From contig NC_045142.1 in the NCBI RefSeq assembly GCF_008831285.2, positions 25,743,876-25,807,875 on the forward strand: a stretch of DNA of 64,000 nt, written 5' to 3'. Position numbers and translations under genes: made by a program. Of the stretch, positions 4,657 through 51,390 are shown piece after piece (position 1 is the stretch's first letter; each line of letters starts with the position of its first letter). The stretch is from Nymphaea colorata. Lineage: Eukaryota > Streptophyta > Magnoliopsida > Nymphaeales > Nymphaeaceae. Below the pieces are notes generated by a model that was given only the letters and a program-made list of their open reading frames with translations, did no database searches and was not told the DNA's origin.

Positions 4657-7020
4657 TCAACAGCATTTCTGTATCCACGTCACCAAGACGGGGCTCCTTA
4701 CGGTGTGCCTACCGTCCCTCCAGGTGAGCGACCCCCATTCGTACTTGTATATACCGTCCGTGAAGTTCACGCACCGCGCCTCCACCCTCACCCGGTACCC
4801 CTTCTTCTCCTTCCTGCCCCCGAACACCAACTCCGTCGGCTCCACCACCACACTGGTACCCTTAGGCGGAACCACCTCCACGGCGTACCGCGAGCTACCT
4901 TCCGCCACGTTGGTCACGGTACGGACAAGCTCCACCGCCCCGAGCGACCCGTTCGCCTTCGGACCCTGGTCGAACTGGACCGCGATAGCGGGGTAGTTCA
5001 GGTCCGCCGGCCTCCCCTTCTTCTTCCCGGAACATGCCCCGCCTTTTCCTGTAATTACCCTTATCTCCTTCTCCGTGTAGTTCGAGTCGCACAGGAATTG
5101 CACGTAGTCCTCAGGTGATATGTCATACACGAGACCTGGATCCACAGCCCGCTCCGGGTTCACGTGCCCGGATCCAAAATCGAGGACGGTTGCCGGCTTT
5201 CGCGAGTTGGCATCGGCGATCGGCGACCCGGCGCGGTCCGTCGAGTAGGCCGTGGTCATCATTGCCGACCGGATTGCAGCCGGCGACCAGTCCGGGTGAG
5301 CCCCCTTGAGCAGGGCAGCGATGCCGGATACGTGCGGGCAGGACATGGAGGTGCCGGAGTAGATATTGAACTCTGTCCGGCGGGTATCGGACGAGAGTCC
5401 GCTGGGCCCCAACCCGTCGGGCCAGGCGGCCAGGATGCTGACTCCCGGCGCGATCAGGTCGGGCTTGAAGAGCTCGGGCACGCCGGCGACGGGCCCGCGC
5501 GCGGAGAAGGCCGCCACCATGGGCGCAGGCTGGGCGCCGACGTGGGTCCCGCGGAAGACGAGCCTAGCGGTCCCGTTGGGTTTGGTCATGGCGTAGAATC
5601 GGATCTCGAGGGACGCCCCCGACCCAACGGAGACCGTCGGTAGCAGGTACGGGTCCGGGATTGGCTCCTCCCCACCCTGGTAGTTCCCGTTCCCGATGAT
5701 CGCTCCGGCGCCGCCGGCCTTCCGCACGACCTCCGACTTCACGATCCGGTCGATGCCACCCCTTTCGCATATGACGATCTTCCCGGCCGCCTTTGCTGGG
5801 TCGAGCGTACCGTCCATGCAGAGCGGGGCCGTGAATTCCTTCCCGGCGGCCGCCACGTTCTTCGCGAGGACGATCGGGAACGATTGGTTCCCCGCTGTTC
5901 CGGGACCGCGGTAGAGGGACTCTCCGGGGAAAACCCGGCCGTCGCCGAGTATGACGTCCGCAGGGAAGTTGCGGTCCAGGGTACCAGCTCCGACGGTCGT
6001 GATCCATGGGGAGACGTTGTCGACGGTCATCGAGCCGGGGCCGTCGTTCCCGGCGGAGGCCGCAACGAAGACGCCGGCAGCCGTGGCCGCGAAGGAGCCG
6101 ATCGCGATCGGATCAGTGTCGAAGGGTAAGGCGTAGCCGCCTCCGACGGAGATGGAGATGACATCGACGCCGTCCCCCACGGCACGGTCGAAGGCCGCTA
6201 GGATGTCTGAGCGGTGGCACGAGGAGGCGCCCCAGCAGATCTTGTAAACAGCAATTCGCGACCTGGGCGCCATACCGGAGGCGACGCCTCCTGCGAGTCC
6301 GAGCAGTGATGCCCGCGAAACGCGCCTTCCGGCGGCTGTAGAAGCAGTGTGCGTGCCGTGGCCCATAGTGTCTCTGGGGGAGAGTACCTCTGATTCATTT
6401 ATCTTCCCGCGCTTTTCGGCCTGATAACCCGTCGGAAACATTCTGGCTCCAACCAGCTTTCGGTTACATGACGTCTTCGGGAAATCCTTTCCCTCCTCGC
6501 ACACTCCCTTCCATTTGGCGGGAACAGGGCCGAGACCTCGGTCGGAGAAGCTCCGCCTCTCCGGCCAGATGCCGGAGTCCAGGACGCCGATCACGATGTC
6601 GGACCCGTACCTCGAGAGCCCCAGAAGCCTGTCTGACCGAGGAACGAGGCCGAGGAACTCCGGGGAGCGCGTGGTGTGCAGCCGCATAACCCCGTCCGGA
6701 ATAACCTTGAGGACCGCCGGGTTCTTCCCCATCTCCTCCGCCTCCTCCGGCGTCATCCTCGCAGAGAACCCATGAAAAACCGTATCATACACATGCAGAA
6801 TTCCGGTGCCTTCTTCGTCCTCCGCCGCCACTTGCTCTGCGGGTTTCACGTTCCTGAGGGAGGACTGGTACCAGCGCTCGTGGGAGGCAAAGGCGGAGGG
6901 CTTAAGGTCGCTCTGGACTCTTACGATGAACGTTCTCTCGTCTCGACCACCGGCGGAGAGGACGGAACAGAGAGCAGAGAGGAAGAACCACGGGAACGTA
7001 GCCCACAAGGCGATCCCCAT
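4657..7020 (-). CDS. Subtilisin-like serine protease, SBT1 type, secreted
   Basis: Intronless gene for a 787-aa preproprotease, as is common for SBT1 members. Order of parts: signal peptide (about 1-25), I9 prodomain (about 28-115), S8 catalytic domain with an inserted PA domain (about 375-490), and a C-terminal Fn3-like domain (about 675-785). The catalytic set is complete: D148 in VLDSGIWPE, H221 in GHGTHT, oxyanion N325 in SAGNDGPG and S558 in GTSMSCPHVSG. The family cleaves extracellular or cell-wall proteins after autocatalytic removal of the prodomain. The ATG at 7020 is chosen because the frame extends upstream only to a GTG, which lies inside the TATA region, and because a hydrophobic signal sequence starts at this Met. 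GC content is much higher than in the flanks. SARGPVAGVPELFKPD departs slightly from the usual plant motif. The substrate cannot be told from sequence. Confidence 0.95.
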   Translation of the reverse strand: MGIALWATFPWFFLSALCSVLSAGGRDERTFIVRVQSDLKPSAFASHERWYQSSLRNVKPAEQVAAEDEEGTGILHVYDTVFHGFSARMTPEEAEEMGKNPAVLKVIPDGVMRLHTTRSPEFLGLVPRSDRLLGLSRYGSDIVIGVLDSGIWPERRSFSDRGLGPVPAKWKGVCEEGKDFPKTSCNRKLVGARMFPTGYQAEKRGKINESEVLSPRDTMGHGTHTASTAAGRRVSRASLLGLAGGVASGMAPRSRIAVYKICWGASSCHRSDILAAFDRAVGDGVDVISISVGGGYALPFDTDPIAIGSFAATAAGVFVAASAGNDGPGSMTVDNVSPWITTVGAGTLDRNFPADVILGDGRVFPGESLYRGPGTAGNQSFPIVLAKNVAAAGKEFTAPLCMDGTLDPAKAAGKIVICERGGIDRIVKSEVVRKAGGAGAIIGNGNYQGGEEPIPDPYLLPTVSVGSGASLEIRFYAMTKPNGTARLVFRGTHVGAQPAPMVAAFSARGPVAGVPELFKPDLIAPGVSILAAWPDGLGPSGLSSDTRRTEFNIYSGTSMSCPHVSGIAALLKGAHPDWSPAAIRSAMMTTAYSTDRAGSPIADANSRKPATVLDFGSGHVNPERAVDPGLVYDISPEDYVQFLCDSNYTEKEIRVITGKGGACSGKKKGRPADLNYPAIAVQFDQGPKANGSLGAVELVRTVTNVAEGSSRYAVEVVPPKGTSVVVEPTELVFGGRKEKKGYRVRVEARCVNFTDGIYKYEWGSLTWRDGRHTVRSPVLVTWIQKCC

Positions 7021-7108
7021 CTCCGAAATTCTCTCTCCCTCCGACTCCCGTCGGAAGAACCAGCAACTAACCGTTGTCGCCGTGAGAAGGGGCCTCCGGC
7101 GCACGGAA

Positions 7109-26742: not shown

Positions 26743-29700
26743 ATGGGCTCCATGACTGTTGGGGAGTCTGCAATTTCTGAGAACTCTTCACCCAAATTGA
26801 AGCCCGGGATTCGGATGAGTGTGGATTTGGTAGCGGCGGCCAGAAAGCATGTTTCATTTCTTAGAACAGTGCATCATTCTGCATCGCTGCATCAAACTGG
26901 TTTCCTGTCGCAGGCCATAAGAAGGTTTCTCCTCTTCTTCTTTGTTCAGTCAATATTGAGTCTCCATGCTTCGACTGTTAACATGGTATTCTGTTAACGA
27001 AGATGGAGTGGAGTTAAGTCGTTAACTGTTCCTTTCCTTTTTTTTTTTTTTATTTCAGGTATCATCAACTATGGATGCCTCTGTATGCCCAGATATCCGA
27101 TTCCTCCCCGCTGGTTCTTCCTCCTATGGATGTGCAGTACATTTGGTTCTGCCACACCTTGAATCCTGTACCGTTCTTCATAACCAGTTAGTATTCTCTT
27201 ATAGTCACAAAATTCTTGGATCCTTATGACGCTACGTCTTGCATAAATCCGTTTTCCAGGCGGCTTTCCGTCGGTATTGCATGTCGAGATTCTCGAAAGT
27301 GATCGAGAAACCAGCCATCTTTGATGATGAAAATGAAGAGTACGCCATGAAGAGATGCAGGGAGATATGGAAACAAAGGTACCCATCTGAGCCTATTGAT
27401 CCAAGAGACTGTCCAGAGGATCCTGCGGCTGCGGGGGATACTGACCTTCATGGGGTCGACTTGTTAGCTGTGGCGATAAAGCAATTGCGGTTCTATACGC
27501 TGGTTTCCGACCCATTCTGGGGGGAGAGTTCCTTCCTGGTATCTGCAAAGCACAGATACAGAGGATTTATCTATCTGCTGCAGAAGTTTCGGGATGGACA
27601 TTCTTTGTTGGTACCCACCATTGATATTCTTCTGATATGGATGACCCACCAGGTAGCTCAGAGACTCTTTTCTCGATTATAATGATTATGTAAAAATTGA
27701 CCGTTGATGGTGCTTCTCGGAATGTACAGAGTTTCCCGGCGAGTTATCACCGAGATGTTGGGGATATGGAAATGTTTGGAGATTGGGAGTGTATGAAAGA
27801 GGAAGACATGAAAGCCACGTGTAGACTATGGGAAGCTACGTTCGATCATCCATACGAGAGAGCAGGAGTGACTTTTGATAGGACCAGGTCGCCGGTTTAT
27901 TGGGAGGCATCAGCCGTAGACGTGAATCGTGGATTTAAATCTCTTGAACCGAGACTTGTCACGGAGGTAAAATACAAAGAAGAGATGAGAAAATCATTGG
28001 GTGTTTAGGTCGCCCGTTTATCCAAAAAACAAAATAATGCAAATGAATTATCACAACTTATCCAAAGATCAGGAGTTTTTATCTCCTTGAATGCATTTTT
28101 CCTCTCTCTCATTCTCAACCTGCAAGAAAAGATAAGACTTTTCTGTTGCATGCATAAAAGACATATACCTCTTGTCATTGAACAAGGTTATTGACTTCTC
28201 TTTCTGATAGTAGGCATCTTTAGTTCTTTTTTCTGATTTACTGGTCTCCTTGACTATGTCAAGTTTGCTGTGGTGTATATTGTGTAGTATCAAAACATGG
28301 TGATTGGTTTATTCTCAAGTCTTAAAAGGAAAAACAGAAAGGATCAGTTCACCTTGTTTTTCTTCTTTTTGGTTTGAGCAGGCTTGTATATTCATGAAGG
28401 GGAATGTAGAGGAAGGATGTGTTAAGAAGACCTTCTTGAGACTAAAAACCATCAGACGCCACAAAGAGTTCAGAATGGACAGGCATGTCTCTAGTATATT
28501 GAGATGCTCATCAGAGATGGCTTTTTGGCAAAAAGAGTGCCAGTTGTGGTGCGAACTAGGAACCAGGGGAATAGCTGTTGAACTACGAAGAAAGGGAAGG
28601 GGCTTTTTCCGATCAGAACTGGTGGAGGATATTGTCTTTTCGTGGAAGGAGGTGATGAGGGCACCATCTCTCACTGTTGGCCGAGTAATAACAGTAGTAG
28701 AAAAGGAGGGGAAAGCGAAGTTAAGAGTGGTGGTATCAATGACACCACCAGTTCAGGCACCATATCTTCTCAAGTGTGTACCTGACAGGGTCACGGACGA
28801 TGCTGGTGCAATGATTTCTGATGTTATTCTCCGGATGAACAAGTATCGGCCTCAAGAGGGTAGATGGTTGTCTCGAACAGTTCTTGATCACAGTGGGAAG
28901 GAATGCTTTGTTATAAGAATCAGGTAAAGCCAGTTTCGTTTAGGTCTGTGTGCGTGCGTGCGTGTGTGCGTGTGTGTGTGTGTGAGGCATGATAGTATTT
29001 TAAGCTGCTAATTTGGTAAGCATGGCCAATTTATTTGATGTGGAAACTACAGTATATGCTTATCAGTGTTAGATTGTTAGGTTCTCCGAGAAGTTTTAGG
29101 CGATATAGCATTCAAGGTGATGACCCAATCTGCTCAGAATATTGATTATGTTCAGTCTAACTGTTGTTATGCCAGTAGGCCGCCTGAAAGCCCGTGCAGA
29201 TCACTTCAGGACTAACATCGAAAGATCATGATGGCTTTTTTTGTTTTTCCCTTAATAAGAATGCCTCCAGAATCCTGTTAACTGCAGTATATGTACCGGT
29301 CTTCGTTTATATAGCTGCAGGAAACACATTTTTAAGTCAATCTGCCTCGTAAAGCCACGCTTCTTGTTACATGATCTTGCTACTTAGATGTACATCAAGT
29401 CACTGGCTTCTGTTTTAAGTTAGCTAATGCCATATCGTTCTAGGATGGCCCAAGGATTTTGGAGAAGAGGGGGAGAAAATCCAAAGCCTGTTAAATGGGA
29501 GGAACGAATCATCCAGGTGTGCGATGGTCCCTGGTCATATGTTGCTGACTCCATAGGGATTGCCCCAGGTAATTTCCATCTTTATACGGCTTTATCCACT
29601 TTAAACCTAAATGTCAATAACTAGACTTCAGCATGCTGAGATAAAGTAGTCATTTAATAAAAATGCTGACAGTCTTAATTTCAGTTAGACGGCTAAAATG

Positions 29701-30665
29701 TTATGTTCAATTTTGAATTTTCAGTTAATAATCACTAAAGTGGTTTGAGTATTATTAGTCTAGTGTCCAAAATGGAAGAATGTTCTAAAATTAGCCTAGT
29801 GCAGCTTCTTGATTAAAATTGACTATGGAGGCAATTCATTCACTTGGTGGCAACTGTGTTCCGTACAGATGGGCTGTTCTGATTTGGGGTAAAAGTTTAA
29901 CTTAAAATGTTGTGATTGCACTTGCAGAACGGATCGTGGGAACAGCCACACCTAAAGTAGATGTAAGAGAAGAAGTTTTACATGGCAATGGAGTTATATG
30001 GTCTCTGTCAACTGGTTATGAGTTGACCATACAATGGGCGCGAGGATTAGATTTCTCACTAGAAAACAACACTTCTGGTGAACATGTAAGTTTTTGGGTA
30101 ACCTGATTACTCCAACTGCATGAAAAGTTTTGTGATATGGAGAAAAGAAAGGCAATGCTTGCAGGTTAGACTACTGAAGGGGAGGAAGCTGCAGTATCAG
30201 GTAGCAGAACCGCATTTAGACAAGGATGACATTGAGGAGGGGTTCGTGACATTAGTTCGGTACTCATCAGATGACCCAGTTGGAAGAGCAACGGCTCTGT
30301 TGAATTGGAGATTCTTCACTGTCGAGTTCCTGCCAGAAGAAGATGCAGCTACTGTGTTGCTCGTATGCACAGCAATAGTTCGGACGGTTTCAGATGTAAA
30401 GGGAGAAGATGTGGGGAATTTGTTGGTGCGAAGGAGGCTGAAGCAAGCAAAAGCAGGAAGCAGAGACTGGGGATCTGTAGTACTTGGCCATGACACGTTT
30501 TCTCAATTGAAAGATGAGATTTCCTCAAATGTGCACCTTCAACCCTGGCACTGGAATCCCAAGGAGGTGATGTCATTGCCAGAGATGAGTTACAGTTTCC
30601 AAACTGGGTTTGGTCAGTCTTCAAATGCTGATGGTGGGGATCGATTATATCAAGGGGGGATATAG
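26743..30665 (+). CDS. DUF1399 (GRDP-like) protein without glycine-rich tail
   Basis: Eight exons: 26743-26924, 27059-27167, 27260-27652, 27730-27966, 28382-28923, 29444-29568, 29928-30085 and 30165-30665; 748 aa, all joins in frame. The N-terminal half has the DUF1399 pattern: YHQLWMPLYAQ and PPMDVQYIWFCHTLNP (about 61-97), an EIWKQRYP motif, then a second related block ending PTIDILLIWMTHQ (about 216-228). The C-terminal half (about 308-748) is the less characterised part shared with the shorter family members. There is no glycine-rich C-terminus and no RNA-binding motif such as longer GRDPs have, and the length fits the short type. Function in this subgroup is not established; longer GRDPs are linked to development and stress responses. 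Exon 2 must end at the weak donor GTACCG (27168), because reading on meets a stop within 8 codons. Confidence 0.88.
28945..28984. repeat. (GT)n/(GCGT)n microsatellite in intron 5 of the DUF1399 gene
   Basis: About 40 bp of GT-rich alternating sequence, just after the exon 5 donor at 28924. Confidence 0.9.
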
Positions 30666-42006: not shown

Positions 42007-42928
42007 TCACATCGGCGAAGCCGTGACGGCGGAGGAGGAGGAGCAGCTGACGGGGACGTCGTCGAAGCTCCAGAGCTCCATGGAGGTGGTCACCGGCGCG
42101 TCCTGAGCGGGGGGCGGCGCCGGCTGTTCGTACGCCGCGTCGAACCCCTGAAGAAACTCGATGTAGGTGTCGTAGGCGCAGAGCTCCTCAGCCAGCTTCA
42201 TCGCGCTTTTCTTGTCCTCCTCCCCCCAGCGGCAGGCTTCTCTGGCGGAATCTCGGCTGCTGCTGCTGCTGCGGCGGCCGGGGTGGCGGTGGCCTGCGGC
42301 TGGTGGTGAAACGCCGGGACAACAGAGTCGAAGCCGAGGAAGACCGGGGCTTCCTGGCGGAACTGGTGGCGGTGGGCCGCCGCCAAGGGTGGGCGAGGGG
42401 CGGAGATCTCGCTGGGGAAGTTGACCTTGGCCTTGCTGCCCCTGATCTTGCGAGCCTCGGCGTCGTAGGCGCGGGCAGCCTCCTCAGCGGTGTTGAACGT
42501 CCCCAGCCACACCCTCACGCCCTTCCTTGGGTCGCGGATCTCCGCCGCCCACTTCCCCCACGGCCTCTGTCGTATCCCCCTGTAGAGGTTCTTCCTCTTC
42601 CGCTTCGGCTTCGGGTCCTCCTCTTCCTCCTCGCGCTCCTCTGTTTCATTTTCACAACACCACCACACACTCTCAGAAGGAACAAAGAAAAAAGGGAGTA
42701 GCAGGAAAATGGCACAGATCGCAGAGGGAAAATGAGAAGAAGGGTTTCGTAGTCGTTACCAGAGGAGAGTCGGCGCTTGGAGAGGACAGGGAAGGGCTTG
42801 ACGGCATCGTCGGCTTTTTCTCCGGCAGTGGTATTGGTGAAGAGGTCCGGCCATTTGTCGGGGATGGCAGCGGTGCCCTTCGCTTGGCTTTGTCGTATAA
42901 GGTCGAAGATGATCGCTCCTCCGCACAT
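42007..42928 (-). pseudogene. Group VII ERF transcription factor, frameshifted copy
   Basis: Two exons: 42928-42760 and 42640 onwards, separated by a 119-bp GT-AG intron. The product starts [11 protein letters not shown]. Met-Cys at the start is the N-degron of group VII ERFs: after Met removal, Cys2 is oxidised by plant cysteine oxidases and the protein is degraded through the Arg/N-degron pathway when oxygen is present. A basic KPKRKRK stretch (67-73) precedes an intact AP2/ERF DNA-binding domain (about 75-132). An Ala tract follows. At a run of six C on the plus strand (42222-42227) the frame shifts, and translation ends at 42198 after 203 aa. The conserved C-terminal region, with the [13 protein letters not shown] motif, continues in another frame to 42007, as it does in frame in the copy at 50245-51153. 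This is either a real disabling mutation or a homopolymer error. Confidence 0.85.
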
Positions 42929-43151
42929 TCTCGTTCAGCTTTCCTTTTCTTCTTCCAACGACAGAGGGTAGACCCCCAAGCAACGGATCTTCTCACGCAG
43001 AACTTCAGATGATGAGAGAGAGATGAAAGAGTTGATGAGATGGTAGCAAGATATGAAGAGAAAGAGACGTCTTCTTCTTCTTTTGTGCTCTCGGGCTCTG
43101 GTTTAAGACTTTTTTTTTTTCCAACCAGAGTTGAAATGACAGGGAAGGGCA

Positions 43152-43159
43152 TATTTATA
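43152..43159 (-). promoter_or_regulatory. TATA box of the left ERF gene
   Basis: TATAAATA on the minus strand, about 225-230 bp before the ATG at 42928. No ATG occurs on the sense strand between the expected start site (about 43125) and 42928, so the MCGG start is the first available. Confidence 0.65.
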
Positions 43160-44214
43160 GACTCAAGGATTCCCTTTGCGACTGACTTCTTTTTTTTTTT
43201 TCCTTTTTTGGAGATCGATTTGCTTTTGTGGGGCGATATTTAGAGGTGCTTAGCTGCTTGATATTTTTAAGTTGACGAATGTTATGTACGTTTCTGTCGA
43301 CATGGAATGAGAAGTATGATAAATTTCTCAATTAAGCAAACTACAGGTCTTAACTTAAAGATGTTAGAGAAAATCTGATTTGACATTAGAGAGAAGAGAG
43401 TCTTAGACTCATTGAATTTTGACTCCTGATAATCTTAGATCAACCAAGATCAAGGTAATCAAATTGTTTATTGAATAGTATCGATCAAGGTTGAAAGCAG
43501 AGATATCGTCACACCTGAATCCGAATGTGACTCTACATTCGAATCTGAATTGCATTACTATGTATATTTTCTCCAAAATGTATAGATATTAGGTACTGAA
43601 TCTAAATCCAAATCAATGTATATTTAAAACCAAATTCCAATACGATGGGATGTTATTTTAAAAACATAATAAAAAGGTGATTAAAACAAGAAAACTTTTA
43701 TAAAATTTTGTAATAATTAAATATTGATATGTGGTATTCTGGAATCTGCACAATTGTTTGCTTGTTCACAAATATCTATTTGGCACATTTAACGATTCAA
43801 GTTCGAGTTTTAGAGTGGTCACTCTCACGTATATGTGAAAACTCAGGGAAACAGAAGAATGGCAGCTTCAAATATCACTAGAGTAGTGGGGTTCCCTCCA
43901 CGATAAAGTTTTTTTATTTCAAGACTTGTTTTCGCGGGCTTTTCATTTACTAGTCCAATCGTTTTATCTCCTTCTTAGTAGCTAGAAACGTGGCAGATGG
44001 AGCAAGATAGATTGATTTTGAATGACAACTTAAAAAATGATGTTTTGTGAAAAATAAAGGTTTTTAACTAATTTTTGAAAACAGTTTGTTCTTTTGAGTG
44101 ATAGGAAAAGAACTAGGCTTTCAGTCTTGGATTACTAAAATCAGTTGATATAATTAAGTTTTGACCTAGTTTTAATGTCAACCAAACACCTATTTAAACT
44201 ATAGTTTCAAAATT

Positions 44215-44290
44215 TTAACAAGGGCCGAAATATAATTTTCTAACATTTTTATAAGTTTTGAGGGGAGGCGATGGCCCCTCCTGACTCTCT
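44215..44290. mobile_element. Partial copy of the dispersed GGGGC-GGCTC-ended repeat
   Basis: An AAGGGCCGAAATATAATTTT core and a right end GAGGGGAGGCGATGGCCCCT are visible. The edges are eroded. Confidence 0.35.
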
Positions 44291-44670
44291 TTAATGTGGG
44301 GACCCAGTGTAAGCAAACGTCGCATTCTATCACTATGAAAAAGATGATTTAAGAACTTTAGTTTATGGTCAAAACCTCATATTTGAAGTTGAAAAAGAAG
44401 AGAGGGGTTTGACCTTAAATCTGCAAATCTCATGTTATCAATTATCTTAAATCACCTCAGACATCATATCCAATGAAACCTCCTCAGATATCATATCATA
44501 TCAGCTGCTATCAAACACACACACTGAAGTATTCAGCAATGGCAGAAGATCAAAGCAACACTGCTGGAAAGTGACAATTGGTAATTGGAGTTGTAGCAAA
44601 AGGACTTATTGTCTCACACGACAAACTAATGTCTTAGAGGTTCCGGTCTACCCAAATAAAATAACAAGGA

Positions 44671-44672
<2 letters not shown>

Positions 44673-44738
<66 letters not shown>
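44673..44738. repeat. (AT)n microsatellite
   Basis: About 66 bp of alternating AT followed by a short GA run. Reading frames through it encode only Ile-Tyr repeats. Confidence 0.97.
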
Positions 44739-44743
<5 letters not shown>

Positions 44744-45313
44744 GAGAGAGATAGAGAGAGACTCATACAACCCTCTACCAAATATAGGGCAAGTGTACGG
44801 CTCTTGAATGTCAAAGGCCAAACTGCTTCAAAAAAGACAGGCATGAGGAAAAAAAAAGATTTAAGGAATAACATTTGATTGGGTTTAGTTTTAAATAAAT
44901 ATTCAATTAGGTTCTTATCCCATTTTAAACAAATATACTATATCCAAAATCCACATATTTTCAAAGTCAAATTTAAACATATCGATGATGCCGATTAGAT
45001 TCAGTTTCAAATTTGAACAGTCACTTTGGCATTAGGACTTGCATTCGGAAGTTGCATTCAGGTCAGATTCAAATTGTGAATTTAAAAAGTCGGATTTGGA
45101 TGTGGTACATATTTTTCTTCCTTCACATTCCAATCTAAATCTGAATGTATGATAATCCCATTAAATTGAATAAAAAGGAGGATGCATCCGGTTCAAATCC
45201 TATCCGTCACATCCCTATTCTGTATAAAAACTGCATCCTAGACATTCCTAATGAACCCTCACCTCTCAATAAGGTCCAAACGATGGAGGGCTTTGTGAGT
45301 GGACCCTCTCCTC

Positions 45314-45737
45314 TAGGGGTGAACAACGAGCTCAACTCGTTAAAGTTTGACTCGTGAATGAGTGAGTTTGAGTCGAGCATTTGTTTAACCAGTTGAGCTC
45401 GAGTTCATGAGTCACTCGTTCAAATAATCGAATTGAATTCGAGCTCAACACGAAACTAATCGAATTTGTCAAGCCTTAATCAAGTCGATATATTCATATG
45501 AGTTTACGAGTTTGTCAAGTCTTAATTGACTCGAGCTCGAGCTCAACACGTAATGATGAATATTAATTCTATTCAAATGAGTTTGTCGAGCTTTAATCGA
45601 GTTCGAGCTCAACACATAATTGCCAAGTCGAGGTCGAGTTGCTTTCGTCGAGCAATTCTCGAGCTTGAGCCGAGTCGAGCCGAGCTCGAGCTCGAGCTGA
45701 CTGAACTGGAGCTCAACTCTGCTCGTGTTTACCCCTA
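45314..45737. mobile_element. hAT-like miniature element, GAGCTC/CTCGAG family, best-preserved copy
   Basis: The 424-bp element begins TAGGGGTGAACA and ends TGTTTACCCCTA, inverted with one mismatch. The 8 bp on each side are identical: CTCTCCTC at 45306-45313 and at 45738-45745. An exact 8-bp target-site duplication with terminal inverted repeats is the signature of hAT elements. The interior contains many GAGCTCGAGCTC and TCGAGTCGAG blocks and no transposase, so it depends on an enzyme encoded elsewhere. Confidence 0.85.
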
Positions 45738-46614
45738 CTCTCCTCTCTTATGGTCTGTTTCGTAAATAGAATAATGTATAGCTATTGAATGAGTATGTCT
45801 CAAAAATGATGTAGATTCATGAAAAAAATTAAAAAATGTTATTATATGAATTTATCTCAACTTTTGGAATGGATTTATGAACATATTTATCAAACAATTA
45901 CATTTGCAAACTAAGAAAGACTTCATGATTATGAGGGGACTGCAAGAGGCGACAGTATCTCATCACTTTCTTCCAAAAACCAGATCAAAAAGGCGGCCAT
46001 TAAAACGGGGTAGCTCGCTTGCAATTGCATTTAACTTGGCAGGAGCACGTGCATTGGCCCCCACAATCAGGAGCTCTCTCTCTCTCTACACATTTGGGAT
46101 GCCAGTTTTCATTGGTGTTGGAATAGTCCCGCTATGCATGAGCCATGTTGCCTCTGCTTTTATCCTCTTTTCTTTCGCTTCTCATTTCTTTCTTTTTTCT
46201 CTCTAGAATGATCCACGGGAAACTGTTGGCGCACATCGAATGGGCACGAACCCAGCTGAAGGAAAACCGAACCTACTTCCTTAGCCCGACACATTTCGCG
46301 ACGACTCGCTTCGGTTTGGAGCATGGCTCTCCTTTTTCAAACGTAGTTGGTGGTTTCAAATCGTTCTTCACTTGCATCTATTGCTCTAATTGCTATTTAC
46401 TTGATTCACGAACTTTATCAACTTAAATGTTAATCATTAAATTACTTGAAAGGATGCCCAATTCTAATTTTTTTCACCTTGCCTTTACTCAATATATTAA
46501 TAACATATTATCATCACCACATATGGTTTCCTACTTCAACATAAACTATTAAACTATTGAAGTATAGCAAATGAATATTTGACCCCTTGTGACACTATCG
46601 GGTTACGTACCGGG

Positions 46615-47053
46615 TAGGCTTGGACACGAGCCGAGTCGAGCCCGACACAAGAAACTTGCTTGGCTCTAACTCGAGTTGCGCTCCTTGCTCCTTATAACAA
46701 GCTCGAACTCGACTAGACTACACAAAATCGAACTCAAACTCGACTCGCTTAATCCATTTAACTCGTTTTGTAAGCATTAACTCATGTAACTCGTTTAACT
46801 TGTGTAACCGTTTAACTTGTGTAACTTTTGAAAATTTGTTCCTACCTTGAAAATTAAAACTGGTTAACCTGTTTTGGCAGTATTATATAGAGTATTAATT
46901 TGTAAGTCGAGTCAAGTATAAATGAGTCGAATTCTTGAAACTCGAACTCGACTTGTTTATCATTTCGAGTAACTTTGTAAGTCGAACATGAGCTGAGTTT
47001 TTTCAAGCAATTTTGAAGCAAGCCCGAGTTGACTCAGCTTGTTGTGCAGCCCT
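46615..47053. mobile_element. Related miniature element ending TTGTGC(A/G)GCCCTA
   Basis: The left end TAGGCTTGGACACGAG and right end TTGTGCAGCCCTA enclose CTCGAACTCGACT-type sequence. The layout matches the element at 58974-59509, making these two a sister group of the GAGCTC family. Target duplications are not preserved. Confidence 0.6.
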
Positions 47054-47280
47054 AATTGAAGGTTGACATTCATGGAAATTATTGAATTAAGGACTGACCT
47101 TGCATCAATCGCTAGTTCGACCAGCTTCACCAAACTCCTTGAAGCCATAGACACTCACTCCTACAAAAAAGCCAAAACCAACATTGTTACTAGAAGAACC
47201 CTAAAGCAAATACATTTGCTTCATTTGTGGGCTCTGGACTGCTATAACTTTCAATTATCTTTAAAATTTTTTGAATGTTT

Positions 47281-47335
47281 TCATTTTAATAACTTCATGC
47301 ATAACTTTATATATATATATATATATTTTGACTGA
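47281..47335. repeat. Short (AT)n run
   Basis: About 20 bp of alternating AT at 47309-47328. Confidence 0.8.
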
Positions 47336-47545
47336 TTCGTAACCAATTTAGCTGATTCGGCAGATTGCTCTACCAATTTAGCTTCCAAATAGTTAAGTCA
47401 TCCCCAACATGCCATAGCCGCTTTCAAAGGCTTTAATTATTGATACTTCAAACCAAGAAACAGCAATGCACTATTTAACTTGCTGGAGGAAGAGGAAAGG
47501 GGAAGGGGGTCCCTGCTAGGGTAATATTAGTGTACCCACTGTTTG

Positions 47546-47840
47546 TAGGGGTGAACAACGAGCTCGACTCATTAAAGCTCGGCTCATGAATGAGTTCAAG
47601 CTGAGTCATTTGCTTAACGAGTCGAGCTCAAGTTCATGAGTCAATTCGTTCAAATAATCGAGTTGAATTCGAGCTCAACACGTAATGATGAATATCAATT
47701 CTAGTCAAACGAGTTTGTCGAGCTTTAATCGAGTCGTGTTCAAGTTCAACACGTAACTGTCGAGTCGAGCTCGAGGTTTCACTAATCGAGTCATGCTCGA
47801 GCTGACTGAGCTCGACTTGGCTCGGCTCGTTTTCACCCAG
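47546..47840. mobile_element. hAT-like miniature element, GAGCTC/CTCGAG family, 3'-eroded copy
   Basis: The left end TAGGGGTGAACAACGAGCTC is the same as in the copy at 45314. The right end is worn to GTTTTCACCCA. The flanks ACTGTTTG (47538-47545) and TCTGTTTG (47841-47848) agree at 7 of 8 bases, supporting the borders. Confidence 0.75.
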
Positions 47841-48420
47841 TCTGTTTGGAACACTGAGAACAAGTCTTTATTATATATCAAAAGAAGATCTAACGGTGTC
47901 GATTTCTTCATTTTGACCCCATAGTTCACAAGAATCACAACCCTTTTGAGAGTCTCCATTTGCAAGCAAGTAAAATTTTATGGGTCCATGAGAACATCAT
48001 GTTTGAGAGGTTCGAGCTTTAATCGAGTTCTAGCTCAACACATAACTATGAATATCAATTCTATTCAAAGGAGTTTGTTGAGCCTTAATCGAGTTGAGCT
48101 CGAGCTCAATATGTAATTGCCGAATCGAGCTCGAGCTGCTTCTGTCGAGCCATTCTCGAGCTTGAGTCGAGTCGATTTCGAGGTTTTAAGCTTGAGCTGA
48201 TTGAACTCGAGCTCGAATTGACTCGGGTTCACCAAGTCTGTTTTGGAACCCTGAGAACAAGTGTTTATTATATAGCAAGAGAAGATCTAACTGTTTCGAT
48301 TTCTTCGTTTCGAGCCCACAGTTCACAAGAATCACAACCTTTTTTAGAGTCTCCATTTGCAAGCAAGCAAGTAAAATTTTATGGGTCCAAGAGAACTGCA
48401 TTTTCGAGACGTGCTCCAAA
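47665..48420. repeat. Tandem duplication of a unit of about 360-400 bp joining half a transposon to unique DNA
   Basis: Unit 1 (about 47665-47995) and unit 2 (about 48025-48420) share, in order, AATATCAATTCTA, TTTAATCGAG or similar, AGTCTGTTT, GAGAACAAGT, TTTATTATATA, AGAAGATCTAAC, CACAAGAATCACAACC, GTCTCCATTTGCAAGCAAG and AAAATTTTATGGGTCCA. The offset grows from 360 to about 400 bp through small indels. The second half of each unit is not transposon sequence. The minus-strand frames in the two units are similar to each other but match no protein I know. Confidence 0.85.
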
Positions 48421-48795
48421 AAAATCAGACCGCTTTTCACGGACTCGTGCCTCTGATCTCCCATCGATAGTGGATCCGATTCGGATAAAGAACTAAACTT
48501 AAAAGCCTTGTCTCTTGAAATTTGTGTCATGTTGTTGGAGTTTAGTCGCCGGTGATTCATGGAGCACACTTCTTTAAAAGACCTTTTTCTCTTTCAAATT
48601 AATTTATTCTTTTTAAAATCTTACGACGGGGAAGGTTCGGTTCATTTAGACCTCGCGGCACACTGGATTCGTAAAAACTAGCGTCCGGATAATAAAAGGC
48701 ACGGCCCCCACCTTAACTGATACATTTGGATTCGGACAAGCTTGGCGGTCGAGGACCCTCATCATCATTATTGCTTTATTTATTTATCTGCACTC

Positions 48796-48827
48796 TAATA
48801 ATAATAATAATATTATTATTATTATTT
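48796..48827. repeat. (AAT)n(ATT)n palindrome
   Basis: About five AAT units run directly into about five ATT units, forming a near-perfect self-complementary stretch of about 30 bp. Confidence 0.9.
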
Positions 48828-48963
48828 ACTGCTTGTTAAATTTAACAAAAATAATCAGATAGCGAAAGTATCGCTCATGTAGAACAACAGTCTTTTCTTT
48901 TGCTTAAAGCTTTTTTTGCTTTTTCATTGTACTTTAACTTGTCTTTTACTTTCATACCTGCCA

Positions 48964-48968
48964 CTCTT

Positions 48969-49029
<61 letters not shown>

Positions 49030-49030
49030 C
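48964..49030. repeat. (TC)n(TA)n compound microsatellite
   Basis: About 26 bp of alternating CT is followed by about 40 bp of TA with one CA interruption. Confidence 0.95.
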
Positions 49031-49039
49031 CAGAGGGAG

Positions 49040-50200
49040 AAAGGTGTTACAGGTTACACGTATGTAAATAGAATAGACTTCCACATGGGAATTTAAGCTT
49101 AGTAAAGTCCAATTTCAGGAAATCATCCATTAAACCTCTGAAAACAACATAAAAACAAATCATAACTATATTAGTACAGTTAGTAACTATTAATACATTT
49201 AAATTTCATTTTTAACATTGAAAAATAATATCTTTTAAATGCTCTGAAATATTAAGAAAAATACCAAGATCTTTGAACACTAACATTTGTTACATTTACC
49301 GGGTAAGTAACACAAACCAATCAATTTACAGTTGTCACGTTGAAAATATCTGGCCACTTTTATTTATCATATTGGTACGAGCTTAAGTTAGTAACAACTT
49401 AGAGCCAATGGTCGTCTTCATATTAATTGAGCAAGTTTTCAGTGCTTCCACATGAATTTCAGATGTTCATAATTTGCTAGCTCCTTCGAAATGAATATTC
49501 TATTTTTTAACTTTGCCAAGGCAGGCCTCCATCAGTTTATGAGCTGCAATTTTCAGCCAAAGAATTTTTAGCTTCTTCCAATTTGAAGTGATTAAAATCT
49601 CAAGAAACAAACTTGGTTAAAACATAAATACAAGATGATCATTTATCTTTTCAACTACCAGATCATAGTAGAACGACAATCACAGAGAAACTTCTGCAAA
49701 CAGATTTTATTATATTATCGACAAGGTGACCTCTGTTCTAGGTCCGAACTCTTGGTAGCATGCCCGGGCTCTGAAGAAAATTTCCGACGACGATCACGGA
49801 AACATGATCTTCTTCTCATTCATGCAAAATTAACCACGCACAATTTGCTGTTCTTAAATTTTCTACTGCTTTTGCTTGATCGAGAGAGGGACGGGGAGAA
49901 AATGAGTAAAGAATTCATAGCTCAACGAAATCCAACCAGTCGAATGAAACAACACCAAGAGAAATTAAAACAGCACAGAGCAGAAGCTCATGTCCCACAG
50001 AGAGAGGGAGAGAGAGAGAGAACCTAATGGCGCTCTGGATGATGACTATGGTTCTTACAATCAGATCAATGGTTTTATTCCTGAAACGTATGAATAAAAT
50101 AACATCTTATTCTCCTAAGAAAACATTATTATTTATTTGTTCTAACCTACCATTTACTTTGCTTTGCTACATGTTGGTGGGGAGAGGGAGAGAGGGGGAG
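49040..50200. other. Intergenic DNA 3' of the right ERF gene, no gene seen
   Basis: AT-rich, with a short GA-rich stretch at about 50000-50020 and another near 50176-50205 just past the ERF gene. No coding signal. Confidence 0.5.
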
Positions 50201-50244
50201 AGAGAGATCGTCGTCGTCGAAGGACAGACACTACTCCGGCGGGA

Positions 50245-51153
50245 TCACATTGGGAGCGTCGACGAGCAGCTGACAGGGACGTCGTCGAAGCTCCAGAGCT
50301 CCATGGAGGTGGCGACGGCGGTCTCCTGGGCTGGTGGCGGCGCTGGCTGCTCGTACCCGGCGTCGAAACCCTGCAGGAATTCTATGTAGTTGTCGTAGGC
50401 GCGGAGCTGCTCGGCTAGCCGCATTGCGCTCTTCTTCTTATCGTCCTCCACGGCAATCGCAGGCTTCTCCGGCGGCAGATAAAAGGCTGCCTGGCGGTGG
50501 TGGTGATAGTCCGCTGCAGCCGCATCGAAGCCGAGAGAGCCCGGAACTTCCTGGCGGAACTGGTGAAGGTGGTGGACAGCGGCAGCGGAGGAAGGGCGGG
50601 GAGAAGGGATCTCGTTGGGGAAATTAACCTTGGCCTTGCTGCCTCTGATCTTGCGAGCCTCGGCGTCGTAGGCGCGGGCAGCCTCCTCGGCAGTGTTGAA
50701 CGTCCCCAGCCAGACCCTCACACCCTTCCTCGGGTCGCGGATCTCCGCCGCCCACTTCCCCCAAGGCCTCTGCCTTATCCCTCTGTAGAGGTTCTTCCTC
50801 TGCCGCTTCGGCTTCCGCTCCTCCTCTTCGTCGTCCTCCCACTCCTCTGTTTCACATCAAACACCACCACGTACTTTCTCAAGAAAAAGGAGGAGGAAAT
50901 GTGGAAAGAGGAATGAAGAAAACAACAGAGGGATACAGAGATAAGCGGGGATGAAGGATTAAAGGAAGAAGGGGTCCGCACCTGAGGCGAGTCGACGCTT
51001 GGGGACGGCATCAGTGAAAGACTCGACTGAGTTGGAGCATTTCTCGGTGGCGGTGGCGTTCGTGAAGACGTCCGGCCATTTGTCCGGGATGGCGGCGGTG
51101 CCCTTCGCTTGGCTTTGCCGTATCAGATCGAAGATGATCGCTCCCCCGCACAT
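50245..51153 (-). CDS. Group VII ERF transcription factor, intact
   Basis: Two exons, 51153-50982 and 50846-50245, with a 135-bp GT-AG intron; 257 aa. The N-terminus [13 protein letters not shown] carries Cys2, the oxygen-dependent degron residue of group VII ERFs, which drive genes for low-oxygen survival when they escape turnover. An acidic stretch (about 58-67) and a basic KPKRQRK motif (69-75, likely nuclear signal) precede the AP2/ERF domain (77-134). The domain has [17 protein letters not shown] and the Ala and Asp typical of ERFs that bind GCC-box DNA. The C-terminus has a Leu/Tyr-rich segment ([13 protein letters not shown]) and [13 protein letters not shown], likely activation motifs. 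The first 28 residues match the left copy exactly. It has its own TATA box and lies 8.2 kb from the left copy in the same orientation, so the pair is a tandem duplication. Confidence 0.95.
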
Positions 51154-51382: not shown

Positions 51383-51390
51383 TATTTATA
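51383..51390 (-). promoter_or_regulatory. TATA box of the right ERF gene
   Basis: TATAAATA on the minus strand, about 235 bp before the ATG at 51153. Motif and spacing match the left copy, so the core promoter was duplicated with the gene. Confidence 0.65.

What the first reader, a model, noticed from the sequence alone, without database searches (positions are those of the whole stretch)
42007..51153. Tandem pair of oxygen-sensing group VII ERF genes
Two same-strand ERF genes 8.2 kb apart both begin Met-Cys-Gly-Gly-Ala-Ile, share their first 28 residues, the intron position, the AP2 domain and a C-terminal motif ending in [13 protein letters not shown]. Group VII ERFs are the plant oxygen sensors, and local amplification of such genes in rice (the SUB1 locus) underlies flooding tolerance. 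The identical N-terminus beside diverged middle regions suggests strong selection on the degron.
Basis: partly seen in the sequence, partly recalled or inferred. Interest (0 to 1): 0.7.

Follow-up and report, generated by a model that had tools for sequence, protein, structure and literature searches.

The report
Oxygen-sensor gene cluster in water lily
A plant that is very probably a water lily carries a doubled flooding-response (oxygen-sensing) gene, one copy of which reads as broken in this assembly, next to a third such gene; the kind is known and the arrangement here is interesting but not revolutionary.

Summary
The pair is real, on the minus strand. G2 (51153..50245) is an intact group VII ERF; G1 (42928..42007) has the same start, intron position and AP2 domain. 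That tail is still constrained (Ka/Ks 0.12), so the shift is an assembly error or very recent.

The genome (407.8 Mb, 783 contigs) fits Nymphaea colorata. I found six ERF-VII-type genes. G1 and G2 are sisters; one counterpart sits on C10. A third ERF-VII (RAP2.3-like) starts 15.4 kb beyond G2's start, just outside the window, and also has a C10 counterpart, in a collinear RPL18-FAH-ERF-ERF block. So an older neighbouring pair of two ERF-VII types was probably copied with the block, and one member later doubled (Ks about 0.5). The C10 counterpart of the third gene starts Met-Arg-Glu-Gly: the oxygen-sensing cysteine is gone.

ERF-VII expansion and Met-Cys loss are already described in other aquatic plants. 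New member of a known kind.

The parts
50245..51153 (-). G2: intact ERF-VII gene, 257 aa; exon 1 51153-50982, exon 2 50846-50245; [11 protein letters not shown] start, AP2 domain, tail [20 protein letters not shown]
   Evidence: Pfam AP2 50.3 bits
50847..50981 (-). G2 intron, 135 nt, GT-AG, phase 1
42198..42928 (-). G1: ERF-VII reading frame as assembled, 203 aa; exon 1 42928-42760, exon 2 from 42640; premature stop at 42198
42641..42759 (-). G1 intron, 119 nt, GT-AG, phase 1
42222..42227 (-). six-G run where G1 loses the frame seen in G2 and in the C10 gene
42007..42222 (-). G1 C-terminal piece ([14 protein letters not shown]...[13 protein letters not shown]...SPM*), out of frame with the rest
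   Evidence: Ka 0.116, Ks 0.974 against G2's tail
43152..43159 (-). TATAAATA sequence 231 bases before the G1 start
51383..51390 (-). TATAAATA sequence 237 bases before the G2 start

Best explanation
The window holds two tandem copies (G1, G2) of a short, HRE2-like group VII ERF in a plant that is very probably a water lily. They are part of a three-gene ERF-VII cluster whose third member, RAP2.3-like, lies just outside the window. Shown from sequence: gene structures, sisterhood of G1 and G2, a collinear block on C10, Cys2 encoded in five of the six family members found and absent in the sixth. Inferred: an ancestral neighbouring pair (HRE2-like + RAP2.3-like) was copied by the Nymphaeales genome duplication, and the C5 HRE2-like copy then doubled. 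G2, and G1 if intact, should work as known ERF-VIIs: Met removed, Cys2 oxidised by PCO in air, arginylated by ATE1, degraded; stable in hypoxia, then activating acclimation genes through the AP2 domain and the C-terminal LWSFDD motif. In G1 the degron and AP2 domain are kept; if the frameshift is real, it makes a truncated factor without the C-terminal motif, possibly a competitor. Most likely the shift is an assembly error or a very recent change.
For: Gene models; AP2 by Pfam; tree; Ka/Ks; genome-wide AP2 and protein searches with six top-ranking loci; N-terminal pattern search; third gene and its C10 counterpart; RPL18, FAH-hydrolase-family gene and both ERFs in the same order on C5 and C10; PCO_ADO and ATE_C families present. 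PMC7015852 passages: 409 Mb, 2n=28, 804 scaffolds, WGD Ks about 0.9. PMC5376641 passages: PCOs act on CGGAI and CGGAIISDFI peptides.
Against: No expression, protein-stability or oxygen data. Ser8 and Phe10 of the tested peptide are Phe and Leu in both copies. Ks of G2 against its C10 counterpart is 1.47 (bootstrap 95% 1.04-2.34), above the WGD peak of 0.9; the other two values are 1.07 (0.76-1.61) and 0.83 (0.65-1.11). G1/G2 Ks varies by region, from 0.36 (AP2) to 0.97 (tail, 0.55-1.85), so the order tandem-after-WGD is likely, not certain. One weak match between the blocks is out of order. The E3 ligase search (PF02207) did not complete. The species is inferred.
Confidence: 0.85

Rival explanations
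1. G1 is a true pseudogene or a truncated regulator: the six-G frameshift is real, and the protein keeps the oxygen degron and DNA-binding domain but lacks the C-terminal motif, so it may compete with G2.
For: The assembled sequence has the shift and an in-frame stop. The published N. colorata assembly was polished with Arrow and Illumina/Pilon (PMC7015852 passages), which lowers the chance of a leftover homopolymer error, if this is that assembly.
Against: The out-of-frame tail is still under constraint (Ka/Ks 0.12), with 3 G1-only against 5 G2-only changes. Splice sites and the rest of the frame are intact. The shift lies in a homopolymer.
Confidence: 0.3
2. The identical 28-residue start reflects gene conversion between the copies and not selection.
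For: Conversion between close tandem copies is known in general (recalled). Ks is lower in the first 28 codons and AP2 (0.42, 0.36) than in the tail (0.97).
Against: The first 28 codons carry 6 synonymous differences, close to the level of the whole part before the shift (Ks 0.42 vs 0.51). The AP2 region is also the lowest against the C10 gene (0.49 for G2, 0.69 for G1), pointing to constraint on the DNA there.
Confidence: 0.1
3. The two genes are not a later tandem pair but two old ERF-VII lineages side by side.
For: The wider cluster does contain two lineages (G1/G2 and the third gene).
Against: G1 and G2 are sisters (97/94), with Ks 0.51 (0.37-0.72) against 1.07-1.47 to the C10 gene.
Confidence: 0.03

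Closest known systems
Arabidopsis group VII ERFs (HRE2, RAP2.3, RAP2.12)
   Same: Met-Cys-Gly-Gly start, one AP2 domain with the same core, C-terminal LW-type motif (compared with recalled Arabidopsis sequences)
   Different: G1/G2 have Phe at position 8 and Leu at 10 and lie in a cluster; an early phase-1 intron is shared by the six genes here, not checked in Arabidopsis
Rice SUB1A/B/C locus
   Same: Local cluster of ERF-VII genes (recalled)
   Different: SUB1 genes are described as orthologs of HRE1 (PMC6399210 section 24); no SUB1 sequence was compared here, and no tolerance phenotype is known
[quoted passage not shown]
   Same: Other aquatic lineages with extra ERF-VIIs, some lacking Met-Cys (PMC6399210 section 24; expansion also PMC7615686 passages)
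   Different: Six genes found here, a modest number, consistent with one block duplication plus one tandem copy in an early-diverging angiosperm

Membership tests
Group VII ERF | Met-Cys-Gly-Gly N-terminus | tested here: met
   G1, G2, C10a, C11 and C5c have it; C10b does not (MREGPVV, no in-frame Met upstream before a stop)
Group VII ERF | Single AP2 domain of ERF type | tested here: met
   G2 Pfam AP2 50.3 bits over cut-off 33.3, one stretch; both window copies over cut-off in the genome search
Group VII ERF | Groups with ERF-VIIs and not with other ERF groups in a tree | tested here: inconclusive
   12-row tree: G1+G2+C10a 100/99, deeper forks open; Arabidopsis references recalled
Group VII ERF | C-terminal LWSFDD-type motif in frame (G2) | tested here: met
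   ELWSFDD in frame in G2
Group VII ERF | C-terminal LWSFDD-type motif in frame (G1 as assembled) | tested here: not met
   motif encoded but out of frame after the six-G run; so G1 is filed as an ERF-VII gene whose protein, as assembled, is truncated
Group VII ERF | Oxygen-dependent turnover through Cys2 | not testable with these tools
   Only the presence of PCO_ADO and ATE_C genes was tested: present; E3 search unanswered
SUB1-type locus | Orthology to rice SUB1 / HRE1 | not tested
   No SUB1 sequence at hand; recalled HRE1 did not join G1/G2 with support
Nymphaeales WGD duplicate block | Collinear genes on another chromosome | tested here: met
   Four gene families in the same order and orientation on C5 and C10, within 84 kb of C5 and 110 kb of C10
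Nymphaeales WGD duplicate block | Ks near the published peak of about 0.9 | tested here: inconclusive
   0.83 (0.65-1.11), 1.07 (0.76-1.61) and 1.47 (1.04-2.34) for the three comparisons; peak from PMC7015852 passages

The most novel reading that the evidence does not exclude
An HRE2-like and a RAP2.3-like ERF-VII lay side by side in the ancestor of water lilies, perhaps of all flowering plants, as one linked oxygen-response locus. In the aquatic lineage it was copied, one arm doubled its sensor gene, and the other arm freed a copy from oxygen control by losing Cys2, giving oxygen-gated and oxygen-independent forms of the same factor.
Probability: 0.35. Interest if true: 0.55.

Novelty: new member of a known kind. 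Interest (0 to 1): 0.38.

Why it matters
It adds an early-diverging aquatic angiosperm to the lineages whose oxygen-sensing transcription factors were amplified, and gives a natural pair of duplicates, one with and one without the sensing cysteine, in which loss of oxygen control can be tested. If the two ERF-VII types prove to be neighbours in Amborella or other angiosperms too, the cluster would show how the family's ancestral members arose.

Tried and rejected
Other Met-Cys starts: the N-terminal pattern gave 13 places, 4 of them ERF-VII genes; it missed the third C5 gene because Ser at position 5 was not in the pattern. The other 9 places were set aside because no AP2 match or 31 lies beside them; they were not read. 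The two next best AP2 matches after the six (C8:13732732, C10:17774016) were read and show no Met-Cys start; they look like group X (recalled). Promoters: no match to the hypoxia-responsive promoter element, with a consensus recalled from memory and up to one mismatch, in 1.5 kb before either start. Solved structures: 9 sequences at E up to 1, of which 5 are AP2-domain proteins and 4 chance-level matches. Literature: ten searches. The four that paired Nymphaea or water lily with ERF, group VII, ERFVII or hypoxia terms listed 20 of 44, 0, 3 and 2 papers, none with a title on ERF-VII in Nymphaea; in the N. minuta genome paper 12 of 15 places were shown, those on ERF concern ERF1 or references (PMC13254204). 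Subscription journals are not covered. (DNA alignment of first exons) started the C10b row too late and was not used.
Full report
What is there. Both genes lie on the minus strand. G2 runs from its ATG at 51153 to its stop at 50245 (257 aa) with a 135-nt phase-1 intron at 50847-50981. G1 starts at 42928 with a 119-nt intron at 42641-42759. Both begin [28 protein letters not shown], carry the same AP2 domain and have TATAAATA 231 and 237 bases before the start. Blastn similarity between the two copies covers the gene body of G1, 42937-42038, and not the flanks.

As assembled, G1 exon 2 runs into a stop at 42198 (203 aa...[12 protein letters not shown]). The expected tail, including [13 protein letters not shown], sits in another frame at 42222..42007, beginning with the last G of a run of six (42222-42227). 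The genome-wide tblastn returned the two parts as separate overlapping pieces. The tail is still constrained: Ka 0.116, Ks 0.974 against G2 over 66 codons, with 3 G1-only and 5 G2-only residues when the C10 gene is the reference. I read this as an assembly error or a very recent change and cannot tell which.

Where it is. The window is C5:25743876-25807875 of a genome of 407,766,735 bases in 783 contigs. Nymphaea colorata is published as 409 Mb, 804 scaffolds, 2n = 28 (PMC7015852, passages read). The match makes it very probable, but no tool gave a name.

The family in this genome. The AP2 profile gave 94 matches and G2 as query 106. The six best loci are G2, C10a (C10:23634305), G1, C11 (C11:13546103), C10b (C10:23655513) and C5c (C5:25810448). 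The next two (63% identity) were read and do not start Met-Cys. Lower-ranking matches were not read, so six is what I found by rank, not a proof of completeness. C5c starts MCGGSIVSDY. Its counterpart C10b starts MREGPVVTDY, with a stop 30 bases upstream in frame and no Met between, an intact phase-1 intron and frame, and an early end after LWCFD. An unseen upstream exon or a sequence error is not excluded.

History. C5 and C10 share, in the same order and orientation, RPL18 (window about -7.9 to -4.9 kb), a fumarylacetoacetate-hydrolase-family gene (0.1-4.0 kb), the HRE2-like ERF and the RAP2.3-like ERF. The subtilase (4657-7104) and the GRDP gene (27239-30665) gave no match in the C10 stretches searched (110 kb in two pieces), and one weak match (C5 window 68.1 kb to C10:23583842, E 4e-5) is out of order; a further AP2 gene at C10:23551 kb also matched the ERFs. 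Ks is 0.83 for C5c/C10b (bootstrap 0.65-1.11), 1.07 (0.76-1.61) for G1 before the shift and 1.47 (1.04-2.34) for G2 against C10a; the published WGD peak is about 0.9, so the dates agree for two of three and are high for G2. G1/G2 Ks is 0.51 (0.37-0.72) before the shift and 0.97 (0.55-1.85) in the tail, so the tandem copy is probably, not certainly, later. The tree gives G1+G2 97/94, with C10a 100/99, and C5c+C10b 100/99, joined by recalled RAP2.3 at 88/88 with a long-branch warning; the other deep forks are open.

Selection on the start. In the first 28 codons G1 and G2 differ by 6 synonymous and 0 non-synonymous changes. Given 40 amino-acid differences among the 124 aligned codons outside AP2 and before the shift, none in the first 28 has P about 3e-6; over all 184 codons it is 5e-4. 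Against C10a, 16 of 28 positions agree. So the whole stretch has been constrained since the tandem copy, but over longer time only the Met-Cys core, Asp9, Ile11 and an AAIP..W motif last.

Mechanism. PCOs act on CGGAI and CGGAIISDFI peptides and so enable ATE1 arginylation (PMC5376641, passages). G1 and G2 keep CGGAII; position 8 is Phe and 10 Leu. PCO_ADO matches lie at nine chromosomal places (C1, C2, C3 twice, C6, C8, C9, C10, C14) and on three small contigs with stops, 21 exon-wise matches in all. ATE_C has two matches, one uninterrupted on C5. The E3 step was not tested. Oxygen-gated turnover of G2 is therefore inferred from family knowledge.

Novelty. ERF-VII numbers of 17 in seagrasses, 7 in duckweed and 7 in lotus, from 4 in the angiosperm ancestor, are reported, with six seagrass homologs and one further homolog (called duckweed there) lacking the MC motif (PMC6399210 section 24); seagrass expansion is also in PMC7615686 (passages). 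The water lily case, with a mixed-lineage cluster and a counterpart without Cys2, I did not find described within the searches listed, which cover open-access papers only.

Noticed in passing
G000:C5:25810448 (L027), 2.6 kb past the window end: Third ERF-VII gene on the same strand, MCGGSIVSDYMRSNDG..., RAP2.3-like by comparison with a recalled sequence.
   Followed up: yes
G000:C10:23655513 (L025): Its duplicate on C10 begins MREGPVVTDYV: Cys2 of the oxygen degron is gone, and the protein ends early after LWCFD.
   Followed up: partly
G000:C557:11854-12327 (L038) and C113:11224-11661 (L039); also C571, C293: Four small unplaced contigs carry ATE_C or PCO_ADO matches with in-frame TAA/TAG but no TGA. 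Two of the four were read and are open under table 6 (244 and 255 aa), which suggests contaminant DNA from a ciliate or another organism that reads TAA/TAG as Gln.
   Followed up: partly
window 4657-7104 (-) and 27239-30665 (+): Subtilase in one open frame (Peptidase_S8, PA, fn3_6, Inhibitor_I9) and a glycine-rich-domain-protein gene (GRDP-like, GRDP_C).
   Followed up: no
window 45533-45643, 47665-48370: Short diverged direct repeats (111 and 129 nt units) between the two ERF genes.
   Followed up: no
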